DNA of 64,000 bases, taken from Plasmodiophora brassicae (lineage: Eukaryota > Endomyxa > Phytomyxea > Plasmodiophorida > Plasmodiophoridae). The stretch lies in the NCBI GenBank assembly GCA_039704465.1, contig JASFAU010000001.1:496001-560000 (forward strand), given 5' to 3'. Each line of letters begins with the position of its first letter. Positions within the stretch are counted from its first letter, which is position 1. The notes under the pieces are model-generated. The model searched no databases and had not been told where the DNA came from. It saw nothing but the letters and a program-made list of their open reading frames with translations. The position numbers and the translations under genes were made by a program. Shown piece by piece: positions 3,797-57,211 of this stretch.

Positions 3797-3850
3797 CGGG
3801 CGCGCGCGACACGTCGAATATGACAATACACGGTCAAGCGGTCGGTCGGT

Positions 3851-21352: not shown

Positions 21353-21625
21353 TAGGTGACCGAGTAGGGGGCCTCCGTCCCCCTACCCAATCACCCTTCG
21401 GTGCCGGTTCCGAAGATCGTGGGAAAGTTCGCAGAACGGTAGGTTACCCCGAGCTACGGTAACATGCGGATCTAATTTATTGAAGATCAAGCGCATCATC
21501 ACCATTAATCAGAGCCAGAGAACGCCAGTTAGTGGTAGCTTGCACCTGCCTGCCATACCGGGTTAATCCCTTATGCACCGTGCATTGCACACGATGTCCG
21601 AGCCGAACAGGTATCACTGACAGTA
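21353..21625. other. Unique insert with hairpin in unit 1
   Basis: About 270 bp not found at the equivalent place in unit 2. It contains a perfect inverted repeat: GTAGGGGG at 21364-21371 and CCCCCTAC at 21379-21386 around a 7-nt loop. No gene is seen. It could be a small non-autonomous insertion or a Pol III-type fragment; I cannot decide. Confidence 0.35.
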
Positions 21626-22335
21626 ATGGATCTCTCCGTAGCGTCGTTGCAATTGGCATCCTAGCTGGTCGTCCTCTCTGCGGCGGGCAGGCGTGATGCC
21701 AGGTTGAAACGACCGGTGACTGGGGTGCGGTGCTTTTGTCGCTGACCGGATGTACCTCTATGAGGGGTGATAGACCCGCTGACAACCGCGAGCACGTACG
21801 CGAAGCAGTCCTTCGTCTAAAGCAAGCACGATCGTCACTGTCCGGTGCTGAACGCATCATTCTCAGCGTCGGACAGTTCTTCGGTAACGATCTGCATGTT
21901 GCGGATCCCCGAAGCGCCCGGTATGCTCGGCAGGTCTTATCCTGTATGCCACGAACCCAATCGACCTAACTTCGAGGCCGTGTTCCGCGATTTTGAGCAA
22001 CGACTCATCACTGGCACGGTGTCTCTCATGGTGTCACTTGCCAGTGCGTACTACTGGATCCACCTGCTCGCTGATCAGAACGGCAACAACACAACAGTGC
22101 GCCAACGAGAGACATCAAGGATGTCCGCAGCGAATCTATCAAGATGTCGCGTCGCAGCTGACATCCACAATCCGTTCCTGGGCCCCAGACAACGACCAGG
22201 TCAAGGTGCTCCAATCCATGCTCCAAACCAATCGTCTACCCAACGTATTCGGTATGCGCGACGCGGGTCGATTGCGTTGCCCGATACAGGGAGAATTGCA
22301 CAATTTGCAACAGTTGTGGATGCAATTTTCTGTGG
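21626..22335 (+). pseudogene. Pseudo-nucleotidyltransferase family, truncated copy A
   Basis: This is the unit-1 counterpart of intact copy B. The signal-peptide exon (ATG at 21626) has lost one base relative to copy B and gained others, so it soon reaches a stop. The second exon keeps ADNREHVREAVLRLKQARSS and PNFEAVFRDFEQRLITGTV but is interrupted by frameshifts near 21910 and 22085. The sequence ends near 22335 and then runs into the start of duplication unit 2. The linker and the whole nucleotidyltransferase domain are absent. It was probably broken by the unequal exchange that made the tandem duplication. Confidence 0.8.
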
Positions 22336-24189: not shown

Positions 24190-26733
24190 ATGCACCTCTT
24201 GCGTAGCGTCGTTGCAATTGGTATCCTGGTCGTCCTCTCTGCGGCGGTCAGGCGCGACGCCAGGTTGAAACGACCGGTGACTGGGACTTTCGTCGCTGAC
24301 CGGATGTACGTCTAGGAGGGGTGATGGACCCGCCGACAACCGGGAGCACATACGCGAAGCAGTCTTTCGTCTGGAGCAAGCTCGATCGTCACTGTCCGGT
24401 GCTGAACGCATCATCCTCAGCGTCGGGCAGTCCTTCGGTAACGATCTGTTACGGATTCCCGAAGCGCCCGATTTACTCGGTGTATGCCACCAACCCAATC
24501 GACCTAACTTCGAGGCCGTGTTCCGCGATTTCGAGCAACGGCTCATCACTGGCACGGTGTCTCTCATGGAGTCGATTGCCAGTACATACTACTGGATCCA
24601 CCTGCTCGCCGATCAGAACGCCAACAACACACAGTGCGCCGACGAGAGACCCCAACGACGTCAGCAGCGAATCTATCAAGATGTCGTGTCGCAGCTGACA
24701 TCCACAATCCGTTCCTGGGCTCCAGACAACGACCAGGTCAAGGTGCTCCAGTCCATGCTCCAAAGCAATCGTATACCCAACGTATTCGCTATGCGCGACG
24801 CGAATTACGTTGTCCTGCCCGTGCAACACTTCTGGAACGTCACGCGTGTGCAGATCGACGACCTGTTAGACGCGGTATCCGAGACACGGAGGCAAATCGC
24901 GGCATCCAGAGTTCTGCTGAAACACTTGAGTTCCGACCTTATCGTTCTACACGAAGTGTACAAAAGCACTTTGGACCTGTCCCTGCAAAGCTACAACCTA
25001 ACCTGGACCGTTCTGATGGAAGCAACGTGCTTGTGGCCGGATTCGGTGAACAAGACAGTTGTTCATGGTGTACTGACCGACCTTGGTGCCAATATAGATC
25101 GATGGCGACTGCAGCGTGATCAGGTCGCATACATGGCCACCTTGTACGCGGACGCCTTCCTAGATCTGGACAACGCGCGCGACCATGTCGAAGAGTGCCG
25201 GTATTTGGCAAACCTGGATTCGCTTCTCGCAGATGAACCGGTGAAATCTGGCAAGCGCCCTTCCAGGAAGAAGCAACTGAAACGGCAGCGATCTGTGCCA
25301 CAACTGCCGGCTCCTCGAGACAGTGAGCCCGCCCCGGCTGGCAGTCAGCTGGCTCTGACGAGGTCGTTTAATCCTGGAGAGCACGATGTTCCTTTGACAG
25401 CAACCGTACAGCCGACTGTAGACGAAGCTCCTGTTAGGCAGGAGAGCAAGTCGGATGATGAAACTTTGGACGCTGAGACGAATCGATGCTCATCTCCGCC
25501 ATTGGTCATGAACAACGCGCCCGGTGATGATACTCTCCAAGACCCAGCTGTCACGTGCACCGATGAGGTCTTCACCAAGGACAACCATGCTTCCGGCGCG
25601 CTCACGGTGGCCCACGAGCAACATTCGCCAGCGATATCGGCCAACAGCGATAACGACGATGAGCGTGATCCCACGAGTGTACCGCAAGACTCTGGCCCTA
25701 ACCGTCAATCAGAAGGCTTGCCGCCGGGTATTGGTGAGTTTCTGGAGCCGCCTGCAATGGGCGGCAGGTATCTCGAGAACGACGTAGCTAGTTTCGTGGC
25801 CTGGGTCGAGACTATGCGACACAATGACGATCCCTTTCGGTACATTGTTCGGCAACAAATCGAACGAATTGCTGCGACCATGTTCCCCGGTTCCGTCGTG
25901 GTACCGGCGCTATCTCCAGCCGATGACTTGTACATGCACTCGCCATTCAGTGGCCTGGATCTCACTGTCAGCAATTCTGCCCTTCCAGGTGGAAGCCAAC
26001 AGCATCTCCATCAGTTTCGTGACGCGGTACTGCATTTGCCGAACATGTTTGTCTCGGCGACGTACGCTTCACTGCCGGTCCCAAAGCTAATCATCAGCTT
26101 AAGGGACAGTCCGTTGATCGTGACGTTATTCTGGAACGTGGTCATGCGGAACGATTTTGCATCGGAGGTCGCCGTGAAGTATCCCATGGTGAAACCGGTT
26201 CTGTTCTACGTCTGGTACTTCCTCGTCCGTCACGGTCTACATGGTACTGCCGGGGGTGGTATCGACTGGCAACTCCTCCAGGTCATGGTCGTCTCCCACA
26301 TCCAGGTGCCGGCGTTCCATGTTTCGTATCGTTCGTCAGCGCTGTAACTGTCCACCGTACAGGTGAACACTGACGACTGCCGGGCGCCGTTCCAGGGCCG
26401 CTGCCTGCGCTCGTTCTTCACGTACTACGGCACACGTTTCAATTATAATCGGGATTGCATCTCGGTGATCGGCAACGGCCGAGTGTTTCCAAAGGTAGAG
26501 TGCAGACTGACGTAGTCATTCCAGCCGAAAGTGATGTATTGAATTAGGCGGAACGAGGTGCGATGGAGCGTCAAGGCCTCCGCCTGTGTGCTGAGAGCCC
26601 GTATGATTCTGCAGTCGACCTTGGCCGTCACGCGTTCGATATCGGGATCGCCGTGCAAAGGTTCAAGGCCGCCTCCAACCTGTTAATGGACTACTTCCCA
26701 GGCCAGCTCATCAGTACAGACATGACTGGTTGA
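24190..26733 (+). CDS. Secreted pseudo-nucleotidyltransferase family, copy B
   Basis: Four exons (24190-24263, 24316-26305, 26363-26494, 26548-26733) close in phase into 793 residues. Exon 1 is a signal peptide or anchor (MHLLRSVVAIGILVVLSAA). Residues about 25-330 form the family's own helical domain: ADNREHIREAV, LEQARSSLSGAERIILSVGQ, PNFEAVFRDFEQRL, MRDANYVVLPVQHFWNVTRV, then LANLDSLLADEP and a basic patch. A variable acidic linker follows. From about residue 500 the Trf4/PAPD5-like region runs: FLEPPAMGGRYLENDV, QQIERIAATMFPGSVV, DDLYMHSPFSGLDLTVSN, VPKLIISLRDSPLIVTLFWN, KYPMVKPVLFYVWYFLV and GGIDWQLLQVMVVSHIQ. Exon 3 gives SFFTYYGTRFNYN, exon 4 the AESPYDSAVDLG PAP-associated block. Catalytic aspartates are partly lost. 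Confidence 0.85.
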
Positions 26734-28517
26734 TAGTCGTCTAGACGGGTCTCGAACGTGTAGAAATAGGAATCATAATTTGGACTTTGTCGGCGTCGGC
26801 TGCACTCGGGACGTGCCTCAGTTGGAAGATGCGGCCGATGCGTTAATCAATGGCCCGTTCCGGGCTCGTTTGTACGTCTTGACCCGAAAGACGTTGTACG
26901 GCAGTCCATCTCGAGATCGCGGTCGCACCGATATATTGTTCGACATGGATGGCTGTCCTAGCGGAGAACGCCATGCCCAGCGCACAGTAAATCAAACGGG
27001 TCGACACCGCATCGACAGCTTTGAGGTTGCCGGTCGAGGCACGACCGGCAACGTTGCGTCGAGCGCCACCGGACCCCGGGTAGGTCATGGCCGCCGACAA
27101 TCGTTGGAGCACGACCAGGAGCAAAGTACAGGTAATTCTTCCAGGAGCGATGGATAATACTCCATTGCCACTGCAACCGACGCAGCACTGTCCAGGATGA
27201 TCGAGTCAATGCATGTAGAGCGGAGAGACAGCGGTCCGGGAATCGCCACGAAGCAGCCGTACATAGGTGTAGCGAGCGACCCCGTCTCCGATCACGTCCG
27301 TGTCGAGAACCGCTGCTGCCGGGGACGGAGCCGTCCAGCAACGCTAGCCGCTGTCGTACGTACCGGTGCGTGATGTTCAACAAATAGGACACGAAGAACG
27401 CAGCGGCGATGACGCCTGATCACCCGGTCGTTGTGGTCCGGGGACGCGGTACGTACGTTAGGCGTTTCCGGCGCCAGCGTTCGCCACCTGCAGGTACTCG
27501 TCGGCGCTTACCCTTGTCTGTAGGTAGAGCATCGGTAGAAAGCGGGTTCGGGCCCCTCGTGTAACATCTTCGGTGAAAGCGCCCTCTCCTGAGACGGCGT
27601 CTAAAGTGACGCGTGCCTTCAGTCAGACGTCTGCTGGTGAACAGTTCTGCCCAGAAACGAAAAGCACGGGCACCATTGCGGTATAGGTTCAGGTAGGTGG
27701 ACGCGCAAGTGCAGTACAAGGTGACGGGTGCGTATCATTGGGTGCTGGCGGCTGTTCATGATATCGGTGTCAAACCGCTTGTCAACCAGCGGGAAACAGC
27801 TAGCGTCCTCCACCCGAATGGTCGCGACTCTTGCCTGGTGCAGTCGAGGATTTCCTACCTAGCTAGCGAACTTCAGCTGGGATCATGCGCAATTACGTAC
27901 ATGCCCACCGTACACTGGCATGAATGAGTTGTTTCGAACGTGGCGGAGACGGTAAATGCACGTGCTTCCTTGAGAGCCCAGCCTTCGTCAGGCACCAGGA
28001 CATCGTGAATATCCCACCCTCTGCCCTTCCGGCGCCTCGACGCCTGACCCACTTTGCCGGCTGCTGGACAGTGAACAGTGAACGCTAACCAGCTGTTGAA
28101 GAAAGGCCGACCTCGAGATGTCCTCCAACGGTCATGGGCTCATGGTCCAATGGCCAGCGTACCGTCGCTTCCCTGGTTTAGCGGGGCGTTTACAGGGTCC
28201 ATTGGAGCAGCCCCAGGCGCAAAGCGTGTTTCGGCAATGACGCTTACTAAAAAGGCCACAGATATACGAGAAGTCAGACAGGGCAGACTTTGCAGGCCAT
28301 GCACAACGTAGCGTCATGACAATACCAATAGTTGCGGGTGGAACGTTCCTCGAACTAATTCCACAGACGGGTTCCCATGTTATTCGTCCATTGTTGCTGT
28401 GTGCCGTTGACCGCGTCGGCGGATCGGCAGTCCCCAGTCAGGGAATCCCGTGCCGCGCTGAAATCCGCTCCAGTGTGACGCCGCACGGCTTCGTCTCCGC
28501 TGCACCTGAGCGCAGCG
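26734..28517. other. Intergenic region between copies B and C
   Basis: About 1.8 kb. The minus strand at 26843-27400 has hydrophobic and codon-like stretches in several frames (GVIAAAFFVSYLLNITHRYV, RLIYCALGMAF), perhaps a decayed membrane-protein gene, but no coherent exon chain could be built. The rest holds short motif-free frames. A diverged copy of the conserved upstream element begins at 28451, before copy C. Confidence 0.3.
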
Positions 28518-29592
28518 ATGACGTCCTCGGGTAGGGTGAACGTCGTGACAATTGCCGTGTCGGTCATCATCTGTCTTGCCACCAACAAACGCCATGTCCG
28601 GTACGTACCCTTTGTGCGCACACGTACCGTATATTCCAGGCGTTCGTGCTCAAGGGTGCACGTCCAGCGGCTGGCCTGTCGACAATCGCGAGCACATATG
28701 TGAAGCTGTCATGCATTTGGAGGACGCGCGAGCATCGCTTTGTGAAGCTGAGCGCATCGTCCTCGATGTTGGTCGCGAGTTCGGCGGCAATCTGCTGCAT
28801 TTCTCGCTGCCTTCCGATTCGCACGATACGACGCGGGACCCCGACCGACCTCCAGTCAGCCACGATTCAAGCATGCCCAATTTCGAGGCCGTATTCAGCC
28901 TCTTCGAGCGTCGCATTGTTACCGACATCGTGGCGCTCATGGAGGCCGTCGCCAACGCGTACCACTGGGTCCAGGTGGTCGCATCGCAGAACTGGACCGA
29001 GACCATGCTCCCCATCGCTAGAGCCCAAACACGACGATTCTACCGAGACACGTTGACCGACCTGGCATCCGTTATTCGATGTTGGGCACCAGAGATCACC
29101 GACCGTTGCCGTCGGCCCAACATATTCGCCATTCGCGACGCAAGTTACGTCGAGCTGCCCGTCCAACGCTTCTGGGATCTGACCAGCGTTCCGATCAACG
29201 ACCTTACACGTGCGATCTTGCAGACAATCAAACAGGTTGCAGCATCCCGGTCCATGCTGGATCTGCTGAACATCGACCGCGTTTCCCTGCATGACGTATA
29301 CCATTCGGCTTTGACTCTATCCGCGACAAGGTGTCGTCTGATGCAGTCCATGGTGGAAAGTGCACGAACACAGATGGGCATACCGGAACTGACGATCATA
29401 GAACGCGTCTTCTCAACGCTACGGGACCATACGCGTCGGCTGATGCTGCTCCACCGTCATACCGAGTACATGGCTTCGATGTACCGCGCCGCCTTCGAGC
29501 ATCTGGACCGCGCAGACGGGCACATTGCACACAGTTTGAGGCTGGTCCGTCTGCATCCGCTGCTGTCTGATCAAACGGCAAGAGCCGCCTAG
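28518..29592 (+). CDS. Family copy C, N-terminal domain only
   Basis: Two exons (28518-28600, 28668-29592) join in phase into 335 residues. Exon 1 encodes a hydrophobic segment (VVTIAVSVIICLATNKR) after eight polar residues. Exon 2 encodes the complete family N-terminal domain: VDNREHICEAVMHLEDARAS, LCEAERIVLDVGREFG, PNFEAVFSLFERRI, IRDASYVELPVQRFWDLTSV, AASRSMLDLLNIDRVSLHDV and SLRLVRLHPLLSDQ. It stops exactly where other copies enter the basic patch and linker. No nucleotidyltransferase sequence is found downstream. It may be a natural free-standing N-domain or a truncated gene; the intact frame favours the former. It converges with copy D. Confidence 0.75.
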
Positions 29593-29966
29593 ACCGAATA
29601 TTTCACTATATACAGGCCAGGGCGTACAACATTGAAAGACGTTTGATAGACGCAGGTCGTCGTCAGGTCTTCTTGTGCTAGGTAACCAGCATCGTCACTG
29701 CCTTTTGGCCCATCGCGGATACAAATGAGGCGCCCGGCAACTTACGACGTCATTGCTGACTGATCTCTTCCATTGCTCGGGAATGCGCAGTGGCAGAGAT
29801 GCAACATGAGTTGCACCCAGTTCATCATGGAGGAAAAAAGAACTGTGAAGACGATCCCCTTCTCTCGCTCGACGCCCTCACACGGGTCCGGGAGCTCTGG
29901 TAGGACCTGCGCCTTGCCAGTTTATTGCGGTCTGAACCTATATGCGAGAGCGTAGTGGTGGACGTC
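29593..29966. other. Intergenic between convergent copies C and D
   Basis: About 370 bp between two stop codons on opposite strands. No gene or family remnant is seen. 3' untranslated regions are expected. Confidence 0.4.
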
Positions 29967-32357
29967 TCATCCGACCATATCCGCATTCAGAAGAAGACCG
30001 GGATGGTACTCCATTAACAGGCTTGATGCCATCTTGAACAGGTGGATTGCCGCACCGATCATGTATGCATCAACGCCAATGTCGGCATCGGGGTCGTCTG
30101 GGCTGAAAGCACACAAACGGAACTGGAACGCATGGCGCGCTGTTGTACCTCGACCAGACTGTTTCCGTACACACACCATTAGCAACGTGCATGCGTTCGG
30201 CTGACAGTACTGCCAGTCGTCTGTACCTTGGGAAACACTCTGCCGTCTCCGGCCACTGAGATGCATTGGTGGGTATAGTCGAATCGATTGCCGTAGTAAG
30301 TGAAGAACGATCGCAGACAATGCCCATAGAATGGGAACTGGCAGTCGTCAGCATTCACCTATACAACGTCATTCAGAAGCGAGCGAACAAACAAGGCCTG
30401 TGCAGGTGACTGAAGTACCTGGAGGTGGGACACGACCATAATCTGGAGGAGTTGCCAGCCGATACCACCTTGACTAGGATCATGCAACCCGTGCCGGACA
30501 AGGAAGAACCAAACATAGAGCAAGACCGGTTTCATCATGGGATAATTGACGAATGCCATCGGTGCAAACATGTTCGACAGCGCCACGTTGCAGGATACCG
30601 TCACGATCATTGGATTGTCCCGTAACCTGATGACCAGTTTGGTTAGCGGGTGCAGGACGAAAGTTGCCGACGTCAGGAACATATCGGGTACACGTATTAT
30701 CGTTTCACATAAGGTCAGCAGATAGCGCAAGCTGTCACCCTGCAGGGCCGGATTGTGGATAGTGAGATCCAGCCCAGCGAAAGGCGCCTGCATGTACAAA
30801 TGGTCGACAGGGGTCAACATCGGCGCAACGACTGAACCCGGGAAAATGGTCTGGACCAGACGTTCGATCTGCTGTTGTACCGTGTTCCGGATCGATTCGT
30901 CTTTATGCCGCCTAGCGCCAACACAGTCCAGAAACATCAATACATCCGCCTCAAGATACGTGTCACCCAGTGGGAGAGGGGCCGGAAGTGCTGAATCTTT
31001 GCTCGGTGAGACATCCCCGGCAGATGAGTCGCTGGAACAATACTCAGGCGAGGCATGAGCTTGGTTGCCCGCCTGGGCGACGACACCGTTGCAGGATTTG
31101 TCAGGTCCCTGGCGATTGCCATCGGCGTGATTGGCATGTGCGACTGATCCCACAGCCGCATTCCGATCAACGGCATAATACTTCGCCTGTTTCGTGCCTG
31201 AGACCGGCACCTCCAGCTGCAGGCAGGATCGGCGTCGCTTTGGCGGTTTCCTTCTGGACGGCTGGGCTGGATTGCTTGCTGCCCCGTCTGATACCAGCAA
31301 ACTCAAGCTGGTCAGGAACTGACTTTGATCGATGTGTCTGTCAGCGCTGGCCAGGCAGTCGAAGGCGGCTTTGTACAGATCCTCCATGTAGTCGATCTCG
31401 GAAAGCAGTATTTGCCACCGTTCCAAGTTGTCGCGAAGCTTCGCGAAGTCGCTCTGGACGACGTGCATATTCACCCATTTCGACCATGGCCGTTGTGCCC
31501 CCATCAGCACTATCTTGCCCAGATTGTAGCTGGAAGACGACAGGTCCAGAGTACGACGGTACAATCCCCGAAGAACAATGCGGTCGGTATCCATGTCCTC
31601 CAGCATCGACCTGGTCGCTAAGGTCTGGCTGCTCGTCGTCGATATCGCAGTCACCAAATCGTCCAGCGGCACGTGCGTTTCGTTCCAGAAACGTTGAATC
31701 GGAAGAGCGACGAAATTCGCATCGCGCCTGGCATAGATGTTGGACAGCGGCTCGATCTGGGGCGCGACATGCAACAGGATGGTAGAAGCATTGCCTGACG
31801 TGTGCACCCGAACCAGAGATGCGAGACGGGCAGCAACGTCGTAAAAGTCTTGTCCCGTTCCGAGTAGTTCGTTGACGTACATGGACTCGTTTGCGCTCGA
31901 TGCGATATGTCTAGTCCACACGTCTACAGAGGTGGCTGAGTGCATGAGCGACACAAGCTGGGTGACGAATGTGCGCTCGAAATCGCGGAACGCGTTCTCA
32001 AACTTTCGCGGGTCGGCAAGACGGCATGGGCAAGGCCGGGGGAGACGCGTGCCGCCACCCGCATTCGACGGTTTGAGAACCCGCAACAGGTCGCCACCGA
32101 ACGATCGTCCCACATCGAGTATGATGCGCTCTGCTTCGCACAGCGACGAACGCGCTTCCTCCAAATGCATAACCGCGTTCGCTATGTGCTCGCGGTCGTC
32201 GGCATGACCGTCCCCCCGCCTGTAAAACGTACAACCGGATATCAATAAACCACGAGAGGCAGCAAGCTACGAAGTACCGTGCACTGCGCTCCGCAGCGTC
32301 GCCGAGGGCGACGAGCAGTCCAATTGCGACGATGGCGGTTCCCAGGGACGTCCTCAT
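29967..32357 (-). CDS. Secreted pseudo-nucleotidyltransferase family, copy D
   Basis: Four exons (32357-32278, 32219-30419, 30358-30227, 30158-29967) close in phase into 734 residues. Signal peptide MRTSLGTAIVAIGLLVALGD. N-domain: HADDREHIANAVMHLEEARS, RRDANFVALPIQRFWNETHV, QFLTSLSLLVSDG, then the basic SRRKPPKRRRS. The linker is the shortest of the full copies. Nucleotidyltransferase-like region: YLEADVLMFLDCV, QQIERLVQTIFPGSVV, DHLYMQAPFAGLDLTIHN, LTKLVIRLRDNPMIVTVSCN, YPMMKPVLLYVWFFLV and GGIGWQLLQIMVVSHLQ; the GGIG here equals the motif of true Trf4 proteins. Exon 3: SFFTYYGNRFDYT. Exon 4 starts SGRGTTARHAF and ends MEYHPGLLLNADMVG. The putative third catalytic Asp is Thr. Confidence 0.85.
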
Positions 32358-32635
32358 GGAGCGGTGAAGCTGCAATGCCAGTTGCGCGCTCGCCAGTTGC
32401 GCTCATCACTGCAAGGCCGCCGAAAATGGCGCCCCAGCGGCACCGTGCTGGTCATTGCCACACTACCACTGCGCAGGTGATGCCGATTGCCGATGATCTC
32501 CAGGCGTTCGTGTGCTATACCGCAGGTGTGCCATTGTGATAGCACTCCTTAAAGAACCGTCTCCCGTTCCGTGGCTAGAATGACACCACGACTACTTGGT
32601 CAATTCCAACGGGGGGTTTGGAGCCCGGCACGGAT

Positions 32636-35198
32636 TCATTCGGTAAGGTTTTCACTGGACATGAGCTGACCGGGAAAGTAGTCCATCAACAGATCAGATG
32701 CCATCTTGAACTTTTGGATGATAGTGCGGATCCGGAACGCATGGAGGCCCAGGTCAATATTCGGGTTGTACGGGCTCTCGGCACACAGGCGGACCCGCTG
32801 CTGGCTTGGGGTCATCTGGCCCCGATCAGTCTATGATACACGACACAGTGAGGGATTTCGCTTGCCAGGCACATCTCTAACCAGTACCTTCGCAAACACT
32901 CTTCCGTTGCCGACAGCTGATATGCAGTTCAGATGGTAGTCGAACCGATGGCCATAATAATTGAAGAAAGAGCGCAGACACCGACCCTGAAATGGCATCT
33001 GGCAGTCATCAGCGTTCACCTAAAGTACAGCACGCGCACGAGGTGAGTATACATTGGCCTTTCCAGAGTGTACGTATGAGTCCGTACCTGGATGTGCGAT
33101 ACGACCATGACCTGGAGGAGTAGCCAGTCGATACCGCCCTCACCAGCATCGTGCAGTTCGAGTCGAACGAGGAAGAACCAGACGTAGAGCATGACCGGTC
33201 TCATCATCGGATACTTGATGGATGCATCCAATGAAAAACGATTGGGCATGACCACGTTCCAGGAGATCGTCGCGATCAAAGGGCTGTCGCGTACACGGAG
33301 GGTCAACCTCGGAACCGGTTGCACAGCAACAGTACCAGACGAGAAAACGCTTGGACCATGCATTATCGTGTCGTGCAAGGCAAGGAGACATCGCAATCCC
33401 TCGCCCTGTCGGCGGAAATTGATGATAGTGAAGTCTAGACCGGTGAACGGCGCCTGCAAGTAAAGGTCATCGACAGGGGATAGAGCCGGCCCCAAGACTG
33501 AACCTGGGAACTTGGCCTGCACTATTAGTTCGATCTGCTGTCGAATCATATGCCGAGCAGGGCCTTCGAGGGACCGCTGCACCCCGACCCAGTTGAGGAA
33601 GGCCGCCATATCTGCCTCCAGATGGGTGTCACCCATCGGCGGCGGGTCGAGAAACTGTTCAATACCCGGTGGGACATCATCCAGCAGCAGGACGTCAGGC
33701 GAGAGGCCCGCGGGATCATGTGCGGGTAACAAGGTGCTTGGCTGGGACGCCAAGATCGGCGCCGGAGAGTACGCGGTCGGTTGGTCATCGGCATCCACGT
33801 CCTCGTTGATGGTCATCATGATCGTTTCCGCCGGCGACGATATCAAGGCAGCACGCTCAACATCAATGTTCGCAGAGTCGATGACGAACGTTGCAGCAAC
33901 AGGTGGCGACATGGGCGCATTCGCGTCCACGACCACCCGGCGAACTGAAGCGTCATCGATTCCCTCGGGACGAATTGTAGCATCGGCATCCCAAGCAGAT
34001 GGGTCATCATCAACGGAGGCAGAAGGGCTGCGTACCTCGGCGGACGGTTGTTCGCCTGTCGGGGTTGTGGAATCAGCCGTCGAGGCAGGCACGGTGTTCG
34101 ACACGTCTGCTGACGACTTCCCGGATCGGTTCCGCTTCCGTTGTTTCTTCCTGGGTCGCGGTGGGTCATTTCGCACCGGCTGCTGCTCAAGAAGCAGCGG
34201 GTCCAGCCTGGTCAGGTACCGGCTCTGCTCGACGTTCTTATTCGCTTGCTCGAGGCATTCACCCGCTTCCTTGTACAGGGTGCCCAGGTGTTCGATCTGG
34301 CCAAGCAACAGGCGTAGGCGGTCCATGCCATCACGAAGCGCCACATGATCCAACAGGACGCTCGCCACCGTCGATGCCGACCAGTCGTACCGGTCATCGG
34401 CCACGACGGCCATCGTCAGGGTGTACACTGACAGGGACACGTCTAGGGTCCGGCTGAACACCTCATAAAGTACAACGCGATCGACACTCAGCTCTTCCAG
34501 CATGGAGCGGGATGCTGCGATCTGTCGCTCCGTCTCTTGTATCGCATTGGTCAGGTCGCCGATCGGGACACGGGTCGCGTTCCAGAAGCGGTGCACGGGC
34601 AGGTCGACGAAATTCGCATCTCGGATGGCGAAGATGTTCGTCGTGGGCTGGCCGTCATCTAACCGTAACGAATGGATGACGGACGCCAACTGGGCGACGA
34701 TGTCGCGACACAGGAGAGGACCGCTGGTCGTGTTTCCGGTCTCGTTCAGCGCCGACTGCGTCCAATCATACAAATTGACAACCAGCTCCACGTCCGTCAT
34801 GGTTGCAGCGATGAGGCGCCGTTCGAGACGGCTGAAGACGGCCTCGAACTGGGGCGGGTGTCGAACACTGCGGATGGGCGATCGGGATCGGCGGTTCGTA
34901 TCGGATGGCCTGGGGACTCGCAGAACGACGTCGAACCCGAGACATTGCCCCACACCGAGGACGACGTTTTCTGCTGCACATAACGATGACCGCGCTGCCT
35001 CCAGATGCGATATCGCTTCCGAAATGTGCTCGCGAGTGTCGGCAGGGGCGGCGCCACCGCGCCTACACGTTCCATCGTTCAGCAAGCGGATTACGAGCAC
35101 AGGCCGACGCACATGGCGGCATACCTTGCGCGTCGTTTCGCAGCGTCACAGATGACGATCAGCATGGCAACAGTGATGATGCTGTGCAGGAGCGTCAT
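32636..35198 (-). CDS. Secreted pseudo-nucleotidyltransferase family, copy E
   Basis: Four exons (35198-35125, 35062-33088, 33019-32888, 32830-32636) close in phase into 791 residues. Signal peptide MTLLHSIITVAMLIVICDAA followed by KRRARR, a possible dibasic processing site. N-domain: ADTREHISEAISHLEAARSS, FEAVFSRLERRL, IRDANFVDLPVHRFWNATRV, AASRSMLEELSVDRVVLYEV, SRYLTRLDPLLLEQ, then the basic PRKKQRKRNRS. A linker of about 180 residues is rich in S/T/D/P. Nucleotidyltransferase-like region: QQIELIVQAKFPGSVL, DDLYLQAPFTGLDFTIIN, VPRLTLRVRDSPLIATISWN, KYPMMRPVMLYVWFFLV and GGIDWLLLQVMVVSHIQ. Exon 3: SFFNYYGHRFDYH. Exon 4: AESPYNPNIDLG and LMDYFPGQLMSSENL. Head-to-tail with copy D. Confidence 0.85.
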
Positions 35199-35509
35199 GA
35201 CTGGCCAGCAGCAACGCCAAACAACGCGCGGCGCCGACCCTATTTCCGTTGCCGCGATCCTGCTGACCCGCCCACTTCCCGACCCGCCGCACGGCACCTT
35301 CTGGGGCCAACAGACAGAGCCAGCGTCAACCACGCAGACACGGACGTCACAATCATGAACAACGCAAACGAGAACGTGTCAGCGGTCCGGTGTATTGTGT
35401 GCAGGCGACATCTGTGTGTTGGGCCTTGTGTCATCGCAGTGCCACACGTGTTGATCAGCGCGCTCCTGTACGATATGACCTGCAGAACACATCTCATCGA
35501 CAGTGCTGG
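35199..35509. other. Intergenic between copies E and F
   Basis: About 310 bp upstream of copy E on the minus strand, GC-rich. The copy E promoter is expected. The conserved TGCCG..TATTCCTG element found before copies B, G and I is not evident here. Confidence 0.4.
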
Positions 35510-38108
35510 CTAGCCCGGCAGGGCGTACGATCCGAGCATGTCCTCGCTGATGAGCCGGCCGGGAACGTTGTCCATCAGCAGTTCGGACGCCCTCTTGAAC
35601 TTGTCGACGACGGTGCGGATGCTGGATGCCAGAGCGCCAAGGTCGACGGCGGGGTCGTATGGGCTCTCCGCACACAGCCGGAACGCGTCGTGCCACATCG
35701 ACCCTGACAGATCCGACTGACAAGTCGCACACACAGTCGTCAGCGTGTTCCGATGGCCGCGGATGCCCCTAAAATTCCCATGGTACCTTTGGAAATACTC
35801 GGCCGTCGCCGACCACCGAGATGCAATCCCGATGGTAATTGAACCGCGCGCCATAGTAATGGAAGAACATACGCAGACATCGACCCTGGAACGGCGGCCG
35901 ACAGTCGTCAGCGTTCACCTGTAACGAACATCGACGTCATACAGCTAAGGAATGCGACGATGCACGGGGCAGTACTATATACCTGAATGTGAGACACGAC
36001 CATGATCTGGAGGAGTTGCCAATCGATACCGCCCTGGCGCAAGTCGTGTAGGCCATGGCGGACGAGGAAGACCCAAACGTAGAGCAGGACCGGCCTCATC
36101 ATCGGATACTTGGCGGCCGCTTCCTTGGCAAAAGCGTTCGGCAGGACCGTGTTCCAGGATAACGACAGGATTAATGGGCTGTCAGGTACCGTGACGATCA
36201 GCGTCGGAAACGGTATCAGGGTAATCGCTGGCGACAGGAATAAATCCCGCGCTTGTACGATTGTGCCAAGCAGTCCAGAAAGGTACTGCAAGGCGTCACC
36301 ATGAAGATCGCGATTGCTTATAGTCAGGTCCAGACCGGTGAACGGCGCCTGCGTATACAGGTCGTCCACCGGGGACAACTTCAACAACAGGAGTGAACGT
36401 GGAAACAGGGTCTGGACAATCTCCTCGACTTGCCGACGCACCGTGTACCGCACAGGATTGTAACGCTGTCGCCACACGGGCACCCATTCGAGGAACACAA
36501 CCAGATCCACTTCGAGATGCGCGTCGCTCATTAGCAACGGCTGCACAGAATGCCCCGGTAGCACATCCTGGAATATCATCGGCGAGATCGGCGCGTTCGA
36601 ATCAGCACTGCCACACGCGTTGTCGTTGACGGTCAGAATGGGCGACGTTTGCACGGGTGCGCCGCGCTGGTCAGTAATGCATGGAACGCTGGAGAGGATG
36701 TCGTCAGCGGGAGTCACTGCGCCCTCTTCGACAATCTGGTTATCCCCAAGATCGATATCATCGCTATAATCCTCCAAAGCTCCTAGTTGCAACATTTCAG
36801 CAGCCGGTTCTGGCACAGGTGGGTTCGGGCCCACGACGAGTTGGCGAATTTCGCGTGGGACGTACAATGGCGTCCGTACGTACCTTGGTCAACCGGCAAT
36901 GGATTGTTGCAGTTGGTTGCTGCTGAACCGAGTGTCTCCACGATTGGTTGTACGTCTGCCGACGTAAGAGAAGAATCGGTCTGCACAGAAACACTCGTTG
37001 ATGTCTCTGCTGACGCCTCGAGCCCCGGTACAGGTCGGGTACGGCTCCGTTGGTTGATCCCGGACGGGGACGAATCATCTCTGATCAGCTCCTCCGAGAG
37101 CAGCGGGTCCAGGCTCGCGAGGGACGAACTCAGCTCGATATGTTTGCTCGCTTGCTCAAGGCATGCCACCGCGTCCTGGTACAGGGTGCCCATGTACTCA
37201 ATCTGGCCAACCAGCAGGCGCACTCGGGCGACTCTGACCCGGAGTGTCACACGGTCCATCATCATGCTCGCCATCGACGATGTTCGATCGCTGGACATAA
37301 CGGCGTCTGTTGACAAACTGTAGACGGAGGCGGACACGCCCAGAACCCGGGTGTAGACGCCATACAGGATAAGCCGGTCAACGTTCAGCTGCCTCAGCGT
37401 CGATCGCGATGCCGAGATCTGGTTGGCGGTCTCTGATATCGCATTCGTCAAGTCGTCGACTGGCACGCGGGTCGCATTCCAGAAGCGTCGCACGGGCAGT
37501 ACGACGAAATTCGCATCGCGGATCGTGAACAAGTTCGTCGTACGCCGGCCTTGATTGCCCAGGAGCGCCTGAACGACGGAGGCCAGCTGGGCAACGGTAT
37601 CATGAGAGATCCGACGAGAACGATGGGGTTCTGGGGCGTTCCTTTCGGGATCGTTCAAGGCCTGATGGGCCGATTCGTACAGATTGGTGATCAGCTCCAA
37701 ATCGGCAGTGGTTTCAGCGGTCAGACGTCGCTCGAGACGACAGAATATGGACATGAACTTGGGCGGGTTCGGTCCATATTGGCAAGTAGGCGAGCGAGAC
37801 GGGTGGGTCGTCCGCCTATCACCAGACGGCCTGGGGATGCGCGGGAAGCTGTCGGTACCGAAGAACCAACCCACGTTAAGAACGATGTGTTCAGCTTCGC
37901 ATAGCGATGATCGCGCTGCTTCCAGATGTTTGACGGCTTCCGATATGTACTCGCGATGGTCGGCAGGGCCGACGACGTCTTGCCTATGGACGAACCGAGA
38001 CGTTCAGCAGCGCATCAAAGATCATTGGACGCGGCAGGACCATCCGCGTCGCTTGGCAGCGTTGCAGACGACGATGACCAGCACGACAATCGTGAGGGAG
38101 GTGCGCAT
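35510..38108 (-). CDS. Secreted pseudo-nucleotidyltransferase family, copy F
   Basis: Five exons (38108-38041, 37983-36884, 36809-35983, 35918-35787, 35716-35510) close in phase into 777 residues. An extra 74-nt intron with a GTACGT donor splits the linker. Signal peptide MRTSLTIVVLVIVVCNAAKR. The usual exon-1 donor position is altered here and a site a few bases on is needed (GGATG/GTCC). N-domain: ADHREYISEAVKHLEAARSS, IRDANFVVLPVRRFWNATRV, SASRSTLRQLNVDRLILYGV and SSLASLDPLLSEEL; the basic patch is weak. Nucleotidyltransferase-like region: EIVQTLFPRSLL (the conserved FPGS Gly is Arg), DDLYTQAPFTGLDLTISN, FPTLIVTVPDSPLILSLSWN, KYPMMRPVLLYVWVFLV and GGIDWQLLQIMVVSHIQ. Exon 4 carries AESPYDPAVDLG and ISEDMLGSYALPG. 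Confidence 0.82.
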
Positions 38109-40564
38109 GATTCCTCAGCGGCCAGCAGGGATGACAATCCAGTGCGTCTGTAATCTGCAGCGACCGGTGGTGCGCAGGTGGCCCGCGCACTGTACCGAGC
38201 CGAGCCGACAATTTGCCGACCCGCTTTCAGGGGTCTGCGCAGTGCGCATGGCCTATCCCCGTATGCGGCATCCATGAAGTACGTCGTTGTTGTACGCATC
38301 CGTCACCCGTCGTGTTCGCTTGGCTGCCACCCACCCGTACCTGCTCGTACCCGGTCAATGCCTACAACGCTCCACCCAACCCAAGCACCCTACCTACAAC
38401 AAGCAATCTGCAGGCATCTATGGGTCGAACAGTTCAGGCACGACAGTGCGGTGTACAACAACGGAAACTCGTCCATACCGTGCTGAGGTCTTCCATCGTT
38501 CACCATTCTTCTGGTCTTGTGCAGCCCCAATGTCCGGGCATCTACTGTGCTTCCTAGGAGCACGTGCCGCTGATGCTCGGCAGTTCGAACCGGTGCAAAT
38601 AATGAGTCAGCACCAGCCCGTCTCCATCAATCCGGTACCCTGTATCCGACGGGTGCGGAAACGGGTGACCGGGTGGAACTGGATCCGGCTCCGGGTACGC
38701 AGTGCAGACCGGTTTGGCAAGGCCGATCACGTCGCCCGACGAATGTCGAGTCGCCGCAGGCTTGGGTACGCCGTGACGACGGCCAGCGAATGCCGCGCGG
38801 GCAGCAATCCCCGCGGCTGCCTCGACTGCCTCATGACGGGCGACGGGATCGGCCGAGATCCGGACTACGCGCAAACGCGGCGTCCTCGACACGACCGATG
38901 GCAGCGCTGACGCGACCCATGAGCGCCGGGATAATGCTCTGCAGCGACACGCATGCGTAGACGAACACGTCTGCCGTTATCCGTATTCCTGAGATCGCGG
39001 AAGCTGTTCGACCCGATTGGAGGGTTTGCACGGGACATCAATGGATGCAGTCCATGCGATCATTGCCAATGGAAACGATCGGGTTCGCGGTGAATGTCGT
39101 CGACGCGTATCAGCTGATGTCAGGTGTTGCGAGGAACAAGTCGGTGCTGCACTCCAGCTGATTGTGAAGTCTAATACCGTTTCTCATGTTCGGATGTCTG
39201 CGTAGGGCGGACGTTGTTGATTCATGTCCCACGACGACCGGCAAACGGTTTACCTCTGGCGAATCGCCGTCTCCAGGACCCGACGATGCCTGTCCCGAAT
39301 CGCCATTCAGGCCGGATGGTCCTACTGATTTGATGGAACTCGGGGTTCAAGATCGGCCGTGGGTTCATCGATGTTTACGGCTTGCCGACTAGTTAGCTCG
39401 CCACTCGTGTTCTGGGTACGCACGCGCCCGCATGTCACGCCATTGTTTCATTTGTGTTCTGACGTCTTCCGTCTGCCTATCAGGTACACCCTAAACGTGT
39501 TCGTTCTCCGCGATCGTCCTACCCGCTGCTCGCTGCCATCTTGTTCGGCAGGCATCGCGACGACACCATGGCCAGTCGTCGCCATCCATGGCACACTGTG
39601 TCACGTGTAGTACGTACATCGAGCGATGATGCCGACGTTGAAGTTCGTTATGCGCACGGTCACGAGCTGTACGTGTATCTGCCTGTCCTGGTCATCCATG
39701 GCTGAGTACTCACATGATTCCGTGTCGCAGATCCCAGGAGGCGCCCGAGATTTGGCCAGAAGACGTCGATGGTGAAGGATGTCGGGAGCAACGAAACTAC
39801 CGGTACTGTGCTGTACGATGCTACGGTCGCCTCCAGGATCAGCTGTCTCATTTTCGGGTACGTTGGCGGCCGTTGATATCATTTGTGCTCCGTGACCTTT
39901 GATGATTCCCAGTCAGGTACACCCGGACCTGCTGATTTGCCTCGTTCGTTCTAGCCGATCATCACCTCCCGCTTATTTGCGATCCTGACCAGCAGCGTTC
40001 CAAGGCGCGGTGGGTACGTCCTGGTTGACGATGCTGTCCAAGATGCGCATCCTGTCGCCGGCGTATCGCTCAACCGCATCCGTCCTTACTTCAACGATGT
40101 CAAGCGGCACGGGGCGGATCGCATCTGGGTGCTGTTGTTTCCGAACGCGTATGCCAAGTCGCTTCAGCTTCGTAGAGAAACCAAAAAGCCGCGTTCGTGA
40201 TCACGTGTGGCTGATCCTCGTCCGTCGTCCGGGATATCTCCAAGTACGACCTGCTGATAGAAGTACACCAACACAGTTTGGAAGTCATTGGCCAGGGTGG
40301 CCGGACTCGACAACAGCACATGCAAACCGGCCGACGGCAGCCAGACAGCATCTTCATCCGTCGTTCGTCGTGTGTTCGGGGGAAGGCATCCAGTAAGCCT
40401 ACTATTGGTCGCGTCAATGCTACCTCTCGAAGTACTTGTATGGCATTGGTGCAGTAGAAATTCCTTGGCGAAGGCCGAGTTGGTGTCCGACACGACGTGC
40501 CGCTATTCCTGGCGAAACCGCTGCCGCAGTTTCGCGATCCGTCTGGCCTCTTGGGAGCCGCGAA
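38109..40564. other. Divergent intergenic region, copies F and G
   Basis: About 2.45 kb between the starts of two divergently transcribed family copies. Open frames at 38554-39031 (-), 39601-39882 (-) and 40010-40400 (+) have some codon-like character, such as SLNRIRPYFNDVKRHGADRI near 40070 (+), but no exon chain, motif or relative could be established. They may be fragments of decayed genes. The conserved upstream element of copy G lies at 40498-40511. Confidence 0.35.
40498..40511 (+). promoter_or_regulatory. Conserved upstream element (copy G)
   Basis: TGCCGCTATTCCTG, 54 bp before the copy G start codon. It matches the strings before copies B and I. Confidence 0.5.
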
Positions 40565-43394
40565 ATGCCCGTCGAACGTCGGCTATGCAGCATCGTCGCT
40601 GCGTTCGTCTTTCTGACGTCCGTCTGTGAAGCTGGTAAACGCCACGTCGGCAGGTACGCCGAGCAATTCGAGGCACGCACGGGCTTGGTTTTGACGAGAT
40701 GTCCGCTCATGTAGGTCTGGCGATGGCCGTCCTGTCGACAATCGCGAGCACATTGTCGATGCAGTTATGCATTTGGAGGAGGCACGGTCATCGCTGTGCA
40801 AAGCCGAACGTCTGATACTGAGCGCGGGACAGTCTTTCGGCGAAGACAGCATAGCACCTCCTGTACTAACATCTGCACTAGACGCTGCGATGCGGCATGT
40901 CGACCGGTTTCCGGTGCGCCATGATGAAATCCCGCCCAACTTTAGCGCCACGTTCTGTCGTTTCGAGCAAACGTTTGTCTCTGAAGTGCTGTCCCACATA
41001 GACTTGGCATTGGAACCCAATCAGTGCACACCAGAAGATCGCGGTAATCTTCTTCTCGGGGTCGTATCCCTCATGCGCCATGCTGGTACCAAACGATTGC
41101 AAGATCAATATGGCATCAAGTCCTTACACAACATTTACGCGGAGCGCGACGAGAGCTACGTCGACCTACCCGTGCAACGCTTCTGGAATACGTCGCATGT
41201 ACCAATCGACGACCTGGATAACGCCATATCAGTGATGGGCAGTCAGATTGCAGCGACTAGGTCCATGCTGGAACGAATGCGATTCGACCAGCTCCTTCTG
41301 CATGGCGCTTACCTAACGGCTCTGAACCTATCTACGCCAAGGATCACGTTGTCCATGGGGAAGCTGGACGAATTTCGAGCCAGAATGGATCGCATGGAGT
41401 TGCTGACGAATCAGATCGCGTTCATTGGCGATGTGTACGAGGCGTCCTTCCATCTTCTGCACGTTGCAGACGCGCATATCGAAGACGTTCGGTACCTGGC
41501 CAGTCTGGATTCGATTCTGTCTGATGAACCCCCGACTCAACCTCAACATCAACGGATCGGCCTTGGACGGAAGCAGAGTCGTCGATCAAAGCGGAAACAG
41601 GCGAGACGGCGCCGGCGTCCCTGTGATCAACTTCCAGAAGTACCGAAACGTACATCGGACATCGTTGCTTCCACGATGGCTACTTCCACGACGGCAGCCG
41701 GTCAAGCGACAAGTGAGGCAGCGTCTTCAGGGACAGACGACGGTCCGTTGTCCTGTCCGACACAAGCCGATCATTGGACTGCGAATGCAGAAACAGAACC
41801 GAGGCAGTCTGATGGCCTTGAAATGGCCAGTGAGGGCAAACCCGTCGACGTCATGCTCGATTCATCGGCGACAGACCGGTTCGACACTCCAGGTGAGGCC
41901 TCGGCGAGTTGTGCGCCAAGTGAACGTGGCACGCCGGTAGAACGTGATCCGTCTTGTGCAGTCGCCCTTCGTGACAATGTCGAACGGCAAGTGGAGCAGA
42001 ACAGCATCGAGTCCACCGGTGTCCACGTGAGCGGAACATTACAGCAAATTGAGCGTTCTTCGAGCACGTCCGGAAGCAGTACTGATGATTATGATGATGA
42101 CGACGATACTGGTATTGAGCGCTTGCCGCCGTCAACGTCGCCGATGGAAATGCCTGCCGAGAGCAATGACATACCAAACGACGACAACTGGACGGCCGCC
42201 GTCACGCCGACTTCCTACGATTCACCAGAACTGGCCGCCCGGCTACCTGATGAGCCTAGGATCAAGAGTGGCGACCCATCAAGCGGCGAATTGCTCATGC
42301 AGTATTCTCGTGACACTCGCATGGAGGACGTTCTCCTGGGCATTGCAGAATTTCTGGAACCGCCTCCGATGGGGGATCCGTACTTCGATGCTGACGTACT
42401 CGGATTTCTGGACTGGGTTAACGGTGCTTGTAATGCCTACGATCCCATTCGGGACGTAGTACGGCGACAGATCGAGCGGATAGTTCAGGTCGAGTTCCCG
42501 GGCTCCACGGTGGCGCCGATGCTGCTGCCTGTCGATGAATTGTACAAGCAGGCTCTGTTTACTGGCCTGGATCTCACTATTGTCAACTCTGGTCTGCAAA
42601 GTGAGGGTCTTCAATACCTGAAGGCGTTGCGTGAAAGAGTGAATCGTTTGCCTTCCGTTTCGTCTTCGATATCTCTTGTGCTGTTACCTTTCCCGAAGCT
42701 CATCTTCAAGTTACGCGACGGCCCGCTACTGGTGACGTTATCCTGGAACGTGTTTCAGCCGAATATGTTCGCAACCGAGGCCATCATCAGATACCCGTTG
42801 CTGAAACCGGTCATGCTCTATGTCTGGTATTTCCTTGTCCGACACGGCTTTCATGACGTGACCCAGGGTGGTGTCGACTGGCAACTGCTCCAGGTCATGG
42901 TCGTGTCACACATTCAGGCACGGTTCTGTGTATTGGCCTGATATAACCCACTTGTTCTCATTCCAATTGTGTTGAACAGATGAACCGCGATGTCTGTCAG
43001 GCGCCATCCCAGGGTCGATGTCTGAGGGCATTCTTCACGTACTATGGCAAACGGTTCGATTACAATCGGGATTGCATTTCGGTGACCGGCAACGGCAGAG
43101 TTTTTCCAAAGGTAACAGTTATGGTGGACAGTCGTACTAAACGACTGCTAATGGCATTGGCTCCTATTCATTATACAGACCGATCGAGGCGCGACGGCGC
43201 TCCATGAATTCCGTCTGTGTGCGGAAAGCCCTGACGACCCCAATGTTGACGTTGGCCGTCAGGCGTATAACATCGCCGCTGTAGTCGACAAGTTCAGGCA
43301 GGCATCTGACATGTTATACGACTACTATCCCGGCTTGCTCCTGAGCGAAGACATGCTCGGAGCCGGCAAGCACGCTCTTGTCCCGCCGGCGTAA
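40565..43394 (+). CDS. Secreted pseudo-nucleotidyltransferase family, copy G
   Basis: Four exons (40565-40653, 40715-42917, 42980-43111, 43179-43394) close in phase into 879 residues. The intron after exon 2 has a GC donor (CAG/GCACGG) where every other copy has GT. Signal peptide MPVERRLCSIVAAFVFLTSV. N-domain: VDNREHIVDAVMHLEEARSS, PNFSATFCRFEQTF, ERDESYVDLPVQRFWNTSHV, AATRSMLERMRFDQLLLHGA, RYLASLDSILSDEP, then the basic RSKRKQARRRRR. The linker is long, about 260 residues, with a D-run near residue 460. Nucleotidyltransferase-like region: QQIERIVQ-type helix, EFPGSTVAPMLLPVDELYKQ, ALFTGLDLTIVN, FPKLIFKLRDGPLLVTLSWN, RYPLLKPVMLYVWYFLV and GGVDWQLLQVMVVSHIQ. Exon 3: AFFTYYGKRFDYN. Exon 4: AESPDDPNVDVG. 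Confidence 0.84.
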
Positions 43395-44397
43395 GATCCC
43401 GACGACGGCACGCAGGCGCCAAACATGAATTTCCCGATGACGTCAGTACACGATGCAACCATACGCTGTCAGCGGTTACGTATTGAGCATGGGAATTGCC
43501 GTCATACATACTGGTGCCCGTTAGCAATACCTACTGGACGTCAGAGATGACGACGCGCGAACTGCGCGCGACTGGCGATCCTGAATCCCGCGGTTTGAGA
43601 TCCTATTAGACCATTCCGGCAGTGTGCCGAGATGTCGATCCATCGGAGCTTTAGTGGTTGTGAGCGTGAGCTGCGATAGCACCGACGTGCCTGACGCCAG
43701 CATTGGCGTCCTCGTTAATCGCCAGTCGTCCATCGTGCTCCAGTAATTCGTTAATGTAAGCTCGACCCCTTCCGAGTTTTTCGAACTTCGACTTCAATGA
43801 TCAGGCGGTCGGACTCGTCGCCGAAATGTCAAGAATCGGTGATGCTCGACGAACGACGGCGGCACCTTTGTTTTAAACGTGTAGGGCGCGTGATGACTGG
43901 CCGGTCTCTTCACGAGACTGGTCAAAACGCAGCGTTGTACTCGTTACCACACGTTCGATTCGGCGTCAATCTGATTCCCCTACATCGAGGCTCTGCATAT
44001 ATACGCAGCTGCGTTTCCTTTGGAGGAAGGTCACACTGTGCATATCCTGACATTTTTCGTAGTAAGTCGTCTGTTGTCCACGCAATGATGAGGTTTCCGT
44101 TAGGGTTCGGACTCCAGCATGGCTCTGCAAGGCAGGCTCCCTGATGGCATGCTGTTCATCATGCCCTATTACGCCGAGCCTGCGACGATGTGGTCAGCTG
44201 ATCACTGGCTGAGGCCCCATATCACGGTAGACAGCGGCAGAATAAACACGTTTGCCACGATCCGCCGAATGTCATTCATAACTCAATCTAGGTAGCTGCA
44301 GCGCCGGCGAACTCTGTGAAATTGGTGTTGCATAAATAGGTAGACGCGCACTTGCCAGTGGACGGAGTGCGCTGTAGCGCAACCAGTTCATCGACAA
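43395..44397. other. Intergenic between copies G and H
   Basis: About 1 kb between two same-strand family copies. Only short open frames without motifs are present. The promoter of copy H is expected at its right end; a partial TGCGCTGTAGCGC string lies at about 44368-44380. Confidence 0.35.
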
Positions 44398-56714: not shown

Positions 56715-57211
56715 GCGGGCGGGGGGGACGCCGCCACGTACGAAGACGACGCGCGCAGCAGACGGACGTGGGCCGCCGCTATTTTGGGGCGCACTGCCCT
56801 CGCCTGCTGTGTGAGTCGGGTTGGACTGCACATCTGCAACGCGTCACGGCCCTGCAGCGTGCCCCAGTGGGACTGCCCCTCCCCCCGCCCCCAACTTCCC
56901 CAGCTGTCACTGCACGGGTGGTACTGCGAAGCTGCAGCCGCCATGCGACGGTCGTCGAGCGCTTTTACATGGTTCTAGCCAGTCGTCGTTTGCGCCCAAC
57001 ATGTCGCAGGCTCGCCGATTGGCATGTATGGCTGATGCCGCTGGTTGATGAGATGACGCGTGGTGCATCGCTCTAGGCATGGAAGCGTCCCTGGAGAATA
57101 TCTTCGGTAGGCCATCGTTAGGATCAACTTCTAATATCTGCGCTTGATCCTGATACGACTGTATTGCGGGTCGACAGCGGGCGTCGTAGGCGTGCAGCGA
57201 GGGCGCCGCCC
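56715..57211. promoter_or_regulatory. Divergent intergenic region, PSF1 / RhoGEF
   Basis: About 500 bp between divergently transcribed starts, so both promoters are expected. It is somewhat AT-richer near 56945-57150. No named element is recognised. Confidence 0.4.

What the first reader, a model, noticed from the sequence alone, without database searches (positions are those of the whole stretch)
24190..51437. Multicopy secreted family with a Trf4/PAPD5-like nucleotidyltransferase fold
Seen: eight gene copies (B-I) plus one pseudogene share a signal-peptide exon, an N-domain, a linker and three C-terminal exons. In the seven full copies the C-terminal blocks follow the order of Trf4/PAPD5: LEAD..FLDWV helix, QQIERIVQ-FPGS, GLDLTI strand, P-LVI-L-DSP, KYPMMKPVLLYVW, GGIDWQLLQVMVVSHIQ, FFTYYG-RFNY, and AESPYDP-VD-G in the PAP-associated region. 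Known: true Trf4 proteins read KYPVLPYLVLVLKQFL, GGIGSYSLFLMAVSFLQ, FFELYGRHFNY and EDPLQPGNDVG at these places. Inference: a paralogous, rapidly evolving branch of non-canonical poly(A) polymerases redirected into the secretory pathway, a combination I do not know from described families.
Basis: partly seen in the sequence, partly recalled or inferred. Interest (0 to 1): 0.95.

Follow-up and report, generated by a model that had tools for sequence, protein, structure and literature searches.

The report
Secreted dead-enzyme Trf4-like protein array
The clubroot parasite of cabbages carries a tandem cluster of genes for apparently secreted proteins that are built like RNA-tailing enzymes but have lost residues such enzymes need, while sister genes elsewhere in the same genome keep them.

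Summary

The interpretation needs a major correction. 'FPGS' is not the GS motif. In 7 of 7 copies the real GS glycine, the first and third catalytic aspartates, the lysine of 'KYYL' and the serine of 'GGxGS' are replaced. Yet this half is the most conserved part (dN/dS about 0.3). The array is best read as secreted pseudo-nucleotidyltransferases, not poly(A) polymerases.

Relatives of the same architecture elsewhere in the genome (C3 array, C7, C4, C6) keep the motifs: 16 of 25 members examined. Six of seven window copies also carry an NLS-like Lys/Arg stretch. My capped literature searches showed no description of the family; databases already auto-label members 'PAP-associated'. Secretion and host-directed function are inferred.

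The parts
24190..26733 (+). Copy B, intact, 793 aa; exons 24190-24263, 24316-26305, 26363-26494, 26548-26733
   Evidence: identical to public protein P0002 (793/793)
28518..29592 (+). Copy C: N-domain-only gene; leader-like ATG near 28518, main ORF 28549-29592
   Evidence: leader junction not verified
29967..32357 (-). Copy D, intact, 734 aa; exons 32278-32357, 30419-32219, 30227-30358, 29967-30158
32636..35198 (-). Copy E, intact, 791 aa; exons 35125-35198, 33088-35062, 32888-33019, 32636-32830
35510..38108 (-). Copy F, intact, 768 aa; five exons 38041-38108, 36884-37983, 35983-36782, 35787-35918, 35510-35716; lacks the Lys/Arg-rich stretch
   Evidence: P0005 confirms the later exons
40565..43394 (+). 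Copy G, intact, 879 aa; exons 40565-40653, 40715-42917, 42980-43111, 43179-43394; second intron GC-AG
44398..47159 (+). Copy H, intact, 838 aa; five exons 44398-44480, 44548-45533, 45588-46711, 46788-46919, 46968-47159
   Evidence: strain version P0001 (783 of 836 identical)
48479..51437 (+). Copy I, intact, 919 aa; exons 48479-48558, 48628-50989, 51050-51175, 51246-51437
   Evidence: strain version P0004 = PBRA_000404 (879 of 918 identical)
21317..22292 (+). Broken remnant of a copy-B-like 5' part (leader region and part of the N-domain)
   Evidence: only compared, not read through
26396..26530 (+). PAP_assoc (PF03828) match in copy B; the other six window matches are 30215-30325 (-), 32870-32986 (-), 35769-35885 (-), 43013-43129 (+), 46821-47030 (+), 51077-51193 (+)
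   Evidence: converted from C1 coordinates (window base 1 = C1:496001)

Best explanation
The array encodes seven intact, apparently secreted proteins with four parts: an N-terminal helical-bundle domain, a linker that is disordered and starts with a Lys/Arg-rich stretch in 6 of 7 copies, a Trf4-class nucleotidyltransferase core, and a PAP_assoc region. The core is a pseudoenzyme: the fold is kept under purifying selection, but residues for metal and NTP binding have been replaced on the stem of this clade. It belongs to a larger P. brassicae family with the same layout whose other members (C3 array, C7, C4, C6) keep the catalytic motifs. Most likely that branch consists of secreted terminal nucleotidyltransferases, and the window branch works by binding: as an RNA- or protein-binding scaffold, partner or competitor of RNA-tailing or RNA-surveillance enzymes, outside the parasite's own cytosol and perhaps in the host nucleus. 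Shown here by computation: gene structure, homology, predicted fold, residue replacement, intact sister branch, constraint. Inferred: secretion (hydropathy only, no SignalP), delivery to the host, nuclear entry, binding role.
Against: No experiment or expression data. The copy-B model is modest (mean pLDDT 61.7, pTM 0.41) and its alignment contained intact-branch relatives. The AlphaFold model of intact-branch P0011 was poor in this part, and Foldseek gave no match at E 0.001 or better, so intact-branch fold rests on sequence. D2 and PVDDLY aspartates stay conserved in the window branch, so unusual chemistry is not excluded. Copy F lacks the Lys/Arg stretch. Three copies have a later 19-residue window above hydropathy 1.6 (F 1.94, I 1.65, H 1.67), probably buried helices. 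The tree has long branches and an unsure root.
Confidence: 0.6

Rival explanations
1. One reading: the window copies are active non-canonical poly(A) or nucleotidyl polymerases redirected to the secretory pathway, perhaps with a rebuilt active site that uses the conserved GLD and PVDDLY aspartates.
For: Trf4-class fold; the second aspartate and an aspartate of PVDDLY are invariant in A3; strong constraint.
Against: Two of three catalytic aspartates, the GS glycine, the lysine and the GGxGS serine are replaced in 7 of 7 copies; Pfam's palm-domain model PF22600 finds 21 places in the genome, none in the window.
Confidence: 0.08
2. Secreted or endomembrane proteins that are not host-directed: for example ER, cell-surface or resting-spore proteins of the parasite, with the dead core used as a structural or partner domain and the Lys/Arg stretch as a processing or RNA/anion-binding site.
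For: Only a leader was seen; no host-targeting motif was tested. Copy F has no Lys/Arg stretch.
Against: Tandem expansion, divergence between copies and strain differences are common in host-interaction genes (general knowledge), but they do not exclude this.
Confidence: 0.28
3. Decaying gene copies: the catalytic residues were lost because the genes are on the way to pseudogenes.
For: One broken copy and one N-domain-only copy lie in or beside the array; strain versions differ (H and P0001 at 53 residues, I and P0004 at 39).
Against: All seven full frames are open; the NTase part has the same median dN/dS as the intact array (0.29 and 0.30) and is better conserved than the N-domain; replaced residues are the same in all seven copies at four of the five lost positions.
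Confidence: 0.04

Closest known systems
Trf4/PAPD5 (TENT4) non-canonical poly(A) polymerases; yeast Trf4, PDB 3nyb
   Same: Same order of blocks, PAP_assoc, best PDB match by profile and by fold.
   Different: Leader peptide, added N-domain and linker, loss of GS glycine, D1, D3, lysine and serine.
Intact-motif paralogues in the same genome (C3 array, C7, C4, C6; e.g. P0011, P0009)
   Same: Same layout, hhalign probability 100%; leaders read by eye in 7 of the 16; Lys/Arg stretch in P0011.
   Different: They keep all catalytic motifs; the leaders of the other nine were not established.
DZF-domain proteins NF45/NF90
   Same: Nucleotidyltransferase-fold pseudoenzymes that lost catalytic residues; the DZF heterodimer raises dsRNA affinity (PMC11952958, passages). 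Works-like comparison only.
   Different: Nuclear host proteins of animals, no PAP_assoc-type relation shown here, not secreted; no DZF chain among the 50 rows.
Expanded secreted families of P. brassicae (ankyrin, kinase, chitin deacetylase clusters)
   Same: Multicopy predicted secreted proteins of the same parasite (PMC12503489, sections 6 and 7 read).
   Different: The words polymerase, transferase and Trf4 do not occur in that paper's main text; its supplements were not read.

Membership tests
Trf4/PAPD5 (TENT) non-canonical poly(A) polymerases | PAP_assoc region | tested here: met
   PF03828 over cut-off in 7 of 7 window copies and in P0001-P0005
Trf4/PAPD5 (TENT) non-canonical poly(A) polymerases | Nucleotidyltransferase fold of the TENT type | tested here: met
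Trf4/PAPD5 (TENT) non-canonical poly(A) polymerases | GS motif and three catalytic aspartates | tested here: not met
   GS glycine, D1 and D3 replaced in 7 of 7; only D2 kept
Trf4/PAPD5 (TENT) non-canonical poly(A) polymerases | Nucleotide addition to RNA 3' ends | not testable with these tools
   needs purified protein
Nucleotidyltransferase-fold pseudoenzyme | Fold kept, catalytic residues lost, gene under constraint | tested here: met
   constraint from simple pairwise NG86 estimates only
DZF (NF45/NF90) family | Match to DZF proteins | tested here: inconclusive
   no DZF family in the Pfam tables; no DZF chain in the 50 rows shown
Secreted host-directed effector | N-terminal signal peptide, no other membrane helix | tested here: inconclusive
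   hydropathy supports a leader in 7 of 7; no SignalP or TM predictor was available; F, H and I have later windows slightly above 1.6
Secreted host-directed effector | Presence and action in the host cell | not testable with these tools
   no proteomic, expression or localisation data

The most novel reading that the evidence does not exclude
P. brassicae exports into the host cell, probably into the nucleus, a two-tier set of Trf4-like proteins: catalytically intact secreted terminal nucleotidyltransferases that re-tail host RNA, and a tandem array of dead paralogues (the window) that act as decoys or partners controlling host RNA surveillance or small-RNA tailing. This would be an unrecognised class of plant-pathogen effector acting on RNA 3' ends.
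Probability: 0.3. Interest if true: 0.92.

Novelty: new variant of a known kind. Interest (0 to 1): 0.74.

Why it matters
RNA 3'-tailing enzymes normally work in nucleus, cytosol or mitochondria (general knowledge). A parasite genome with at least 25 members of a Trf4-like family, of which those checked carry a leader peptide, split into a motif-intact and a motif-dead branch, would be an unusual redirection. It gives a testable idea of how an intracellular plant parasite that cannot be grown alone might interfere with host RNA metabolism. It is also a natural experiment in pseudoenzyme evolution: two arrays with the same layout and similar constraint, one with and one without catalytic residues. 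In practice, proteins auto-labelled 'PAP-associated' here should not be assumed to be polymerases.

Tried and rejected
Rejected: 'FPGS' as the GS motif; in the alignments it falls on FPDA/WPDA, before the true GS. Rejected: pseudogene decay.

Led nowhere or against: Pfam on the unspliced main exons found PAP_assoc only in copy I, because the domain lies in later exons. The first protein search, with copy G, gave one hit; only the 7993 candidates sharing most words were scored. Copy I alone against PDB gave only GLD-2 at E 0.97. AlphaFold of intact-branch P0011 was poor in the NTase part; Foldseek then gave 0 matches at E 0.001 or better, best E 0.057 to designed helical bundles. The N-domain therefore has no identified relative; it was not modelled alone (both jobs used). 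P0011 scores just under the PF22600 cut-off (26.6 against 27 bits), P0009 over it. Relatives outside P. brassicae: only two Diphasiastrum proteins (E about 6e-7) besides unnamed contigs; the search is limited to shared words, so restriction to P. brassicae is not shown. The common tail 'TARAA' of N-domain-only copies C and C6a is unexplained; their DNA matches only in two short pieces.

Literature: searches looked for the family, its locus tags (two real, four guessed) or effectors of this kind. No listed paper described it, but lists were capped (20 of 488, 10 of 68, 12 of 203), and supplements could not be read. One search looked for the complete-genome paper, for DZF papers. Papers seen: PMC12503489 (sections 6 and 7, and passages); PMC4471660, PMC11278463, PMC9530463, PMC8595600, PMC11952958 (passages only).

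Full report
WHERE IT IS. The window is C1:496001-560000 of a 25.3-Mb, 21-contig assembly. Protein searches return Plasmodiophora brassicae, one protein identical to copy B (P0002, 793/793), so the organism is the clubroot parasite.

WHAT THE GENES ARE. Splicing at consensus introns gives seven intact proteins of 734-919 aa (B, D, E, F, G, H, I) without internal stops. Each has a short hydrophobic leader on its own exon, then one large exon with N-domain, linker and nucleotidyltransferase core (F and H have one extra linker intron), then two exons with the PAP_assoc region. Public proteins P0001, P0002, P0004, and P0005 apart from its start, agree with this layout. Copy C stops after the N-domain, and a broken 5' remnant of a B-like copy lies at 21.3-22.3 kb. 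B, C, G, H, I are on +, D, E, F on -.

IS IT A POLYMERASE? Probably not. The genome holds relatives of the same layout: an array on C3 (133-172 kb), a pair on C7, and genes at C3:1652k, C4:193k and C6:372k. Window and intact branches align with hhalign probability 100%, E 6.4e-50 over 265 columns. The intact branch reads roughly AGSxxYGLHLxAPxSDLDLVV ... VDIxWN ... YxKYYL ... GGLGSF; the window branch reads LSPxDDLYxQAPFTGLDLTI ... VTLSWN ... YVWYFL ... GGIDWQ. In a table of eight positions, 11 of 11 C3/C7 members keep GS, D1, D2, D3, the lysine and the GGxGS serine (one has K for the glycine before that serine). Of the window copies, 7 of 7 have L for the GS glycine, G for D1, W for the lysine and W for the serine, and T (5), S (1) or A (1) for D3; D2 is kept. 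With six more members, 16 of 25 match the intact GS-DxD-D pattern. The nine that do not are the seven window copies, P0003 on C16, and a separately degenerate gene at C1:446k with N for D1 and H for D3. The direct alignment of A3 to Trf4 puts GS, D1, D2 and the third position on the same columns; that 3nyb reads alanine at the third position because a D294A mutant was crystallised is recalled. Pfam's palm model PF22600 finds 21 places (20 over cut-off), none in the window.

IS IT DECAYING? No sign of it. By pairwise NG86 estimates the nucleotidyltransferase part has median dN/dS 0.29 in the window array (21 pairs) and 0.30 in nine C3 members (36 pairs). It and PAP_assoc are the most conserved parts: mean identity 53% and 61%, against 40% for the N-domain and 24% for the linker. 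Synonymous sites are near saturation (median dS about 1.1), so these ratios are rough. A tree of 24 rows puts the seven window copies and P0003 in one clade (support 100/99) with a stem of 1.99; only 4 of 21 inner branches are well supported and long branches make the root unsure. A canonical Trf4-like gene, with no leader seen, lies at C4:1599k with intact motifs (L039).

OTHER ANATOMY. Six of seven copies have a dense Lys/Arg stretch just after the N-domain (7-12 K/R in 20 residues; the best other window in any of these proteins is 7), as do P0003 (11) and P0011 (10); copy F does not. It resembles a nuclear localisation signal but could bind RNA or be a processing site. In the models the linker is disordered and the N-domain a bundle of long helices; P0001-P0005, P0011 and P0009 show no Pfam match outside the catalytic half at E 1. 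N-domain-only genes also occur on C6 (two) and C16:886k, with hydrophobic leaders, and C14 (leader not seen); C20:129k also matches the N-domain. Strain versions differ: H and P0001 at 53 residues spread over all parts, I and P0004 at 39, 26 of them in the linker; B and P0002 are identical.

HOW IT MAY WORK. The parasite lives inside root cells (general knowledge), so a secreted protein meets host cytoplasm. The likeliest role is binding without catalysis, as for NF45/NF90, whose DZF domains are nucleotidyltransferase pseudoenzymes and whose DZF heterodimer raises dsRNA affinity (PMC11952958, passages). The window proteins could pair with or compete against the intact branch or host Trf4/URT1/HESO1-type enzymes (names recalled). 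My estimates: Trf4-class descent 0.97; loss of standard catalysis 0.9; secreted 0.85; host-directed 0.6; nuclear 0.4.

NOVELTY. Databases already label members 'PAP-associated domain-containing', so the Pfam link is not new. My capped searches listed no description of the family, and the 2025 structural secretome study of gall-formers does not use the words polymerase, transferase or Trf4 in its main text (supplements not read). I rate it a new variant of a known kind: a secreted, lineage-expanded TENT family with a pseudoenzyme branch.

Noticed in passing
C3:133-172 kb, C7:105-111 kb, C3:1652 kb, C4:193 kb, C6:372 kb (L003, L004, L040-L050): Sixteen relatives of the same layout with intact catalytic motifs, mostly in one array; possibly secreted active terminal nucleotidyltransferases.
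   Followed up: partly
C1:446 kb (L036): A further family member with a separately degenerate active site (N for D1, H for D3, GS and lysine kept).
   Followed up: partly
window 28518-29592; C6:1316-1320 kb (L021); C14:13.7 kb (L023); C16:886 kb (L024): N-domain-only genes; C and the first C6 gene end in the same five residues TARAA, and the C14 and C16 genes are 73% identical over 358 aa with their own C-terminal tail.
   Followed up: partly
window copy I, linker (about 49.9-50.4 kb): A long, nearly exact internal repeat (APSTAASDDDEKRTRPAL..PTEMLSASDNA...) inside the disordered linker, also present in P0004.
   Followed up: no
window 10031-11674 (-) and 17430-18563 (+): Two ankyrin-repeat ORFs upstream of the array (Pfam Ank_2 E 7.8e-20 and 2.4e-32).
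   Followed up: no
window 22816-23979 (-): ORFs with several hydrophobic stretches, apparently a membrane protein, between the broken copy and copy B; one 185-aa piece gave no Pfam match.
   Followed up: no
window 1797-5149 (-) and 51617-61096 (+): Housekeeping-type neighbours: ER-lumen retention receptor, HSP90, a weak FYVE match below cut-off, RhoGEF with WW domain.
   Followed up: no
public proteins P0005, P0006, P0007: Database gene models look wrong: P0005 has an unlikely N-terminus, and P0006 and P0007 appear to fuse neighbouring genes; several records carry a 'mitochondrion' label on megabase contigs.
   Followed up: no
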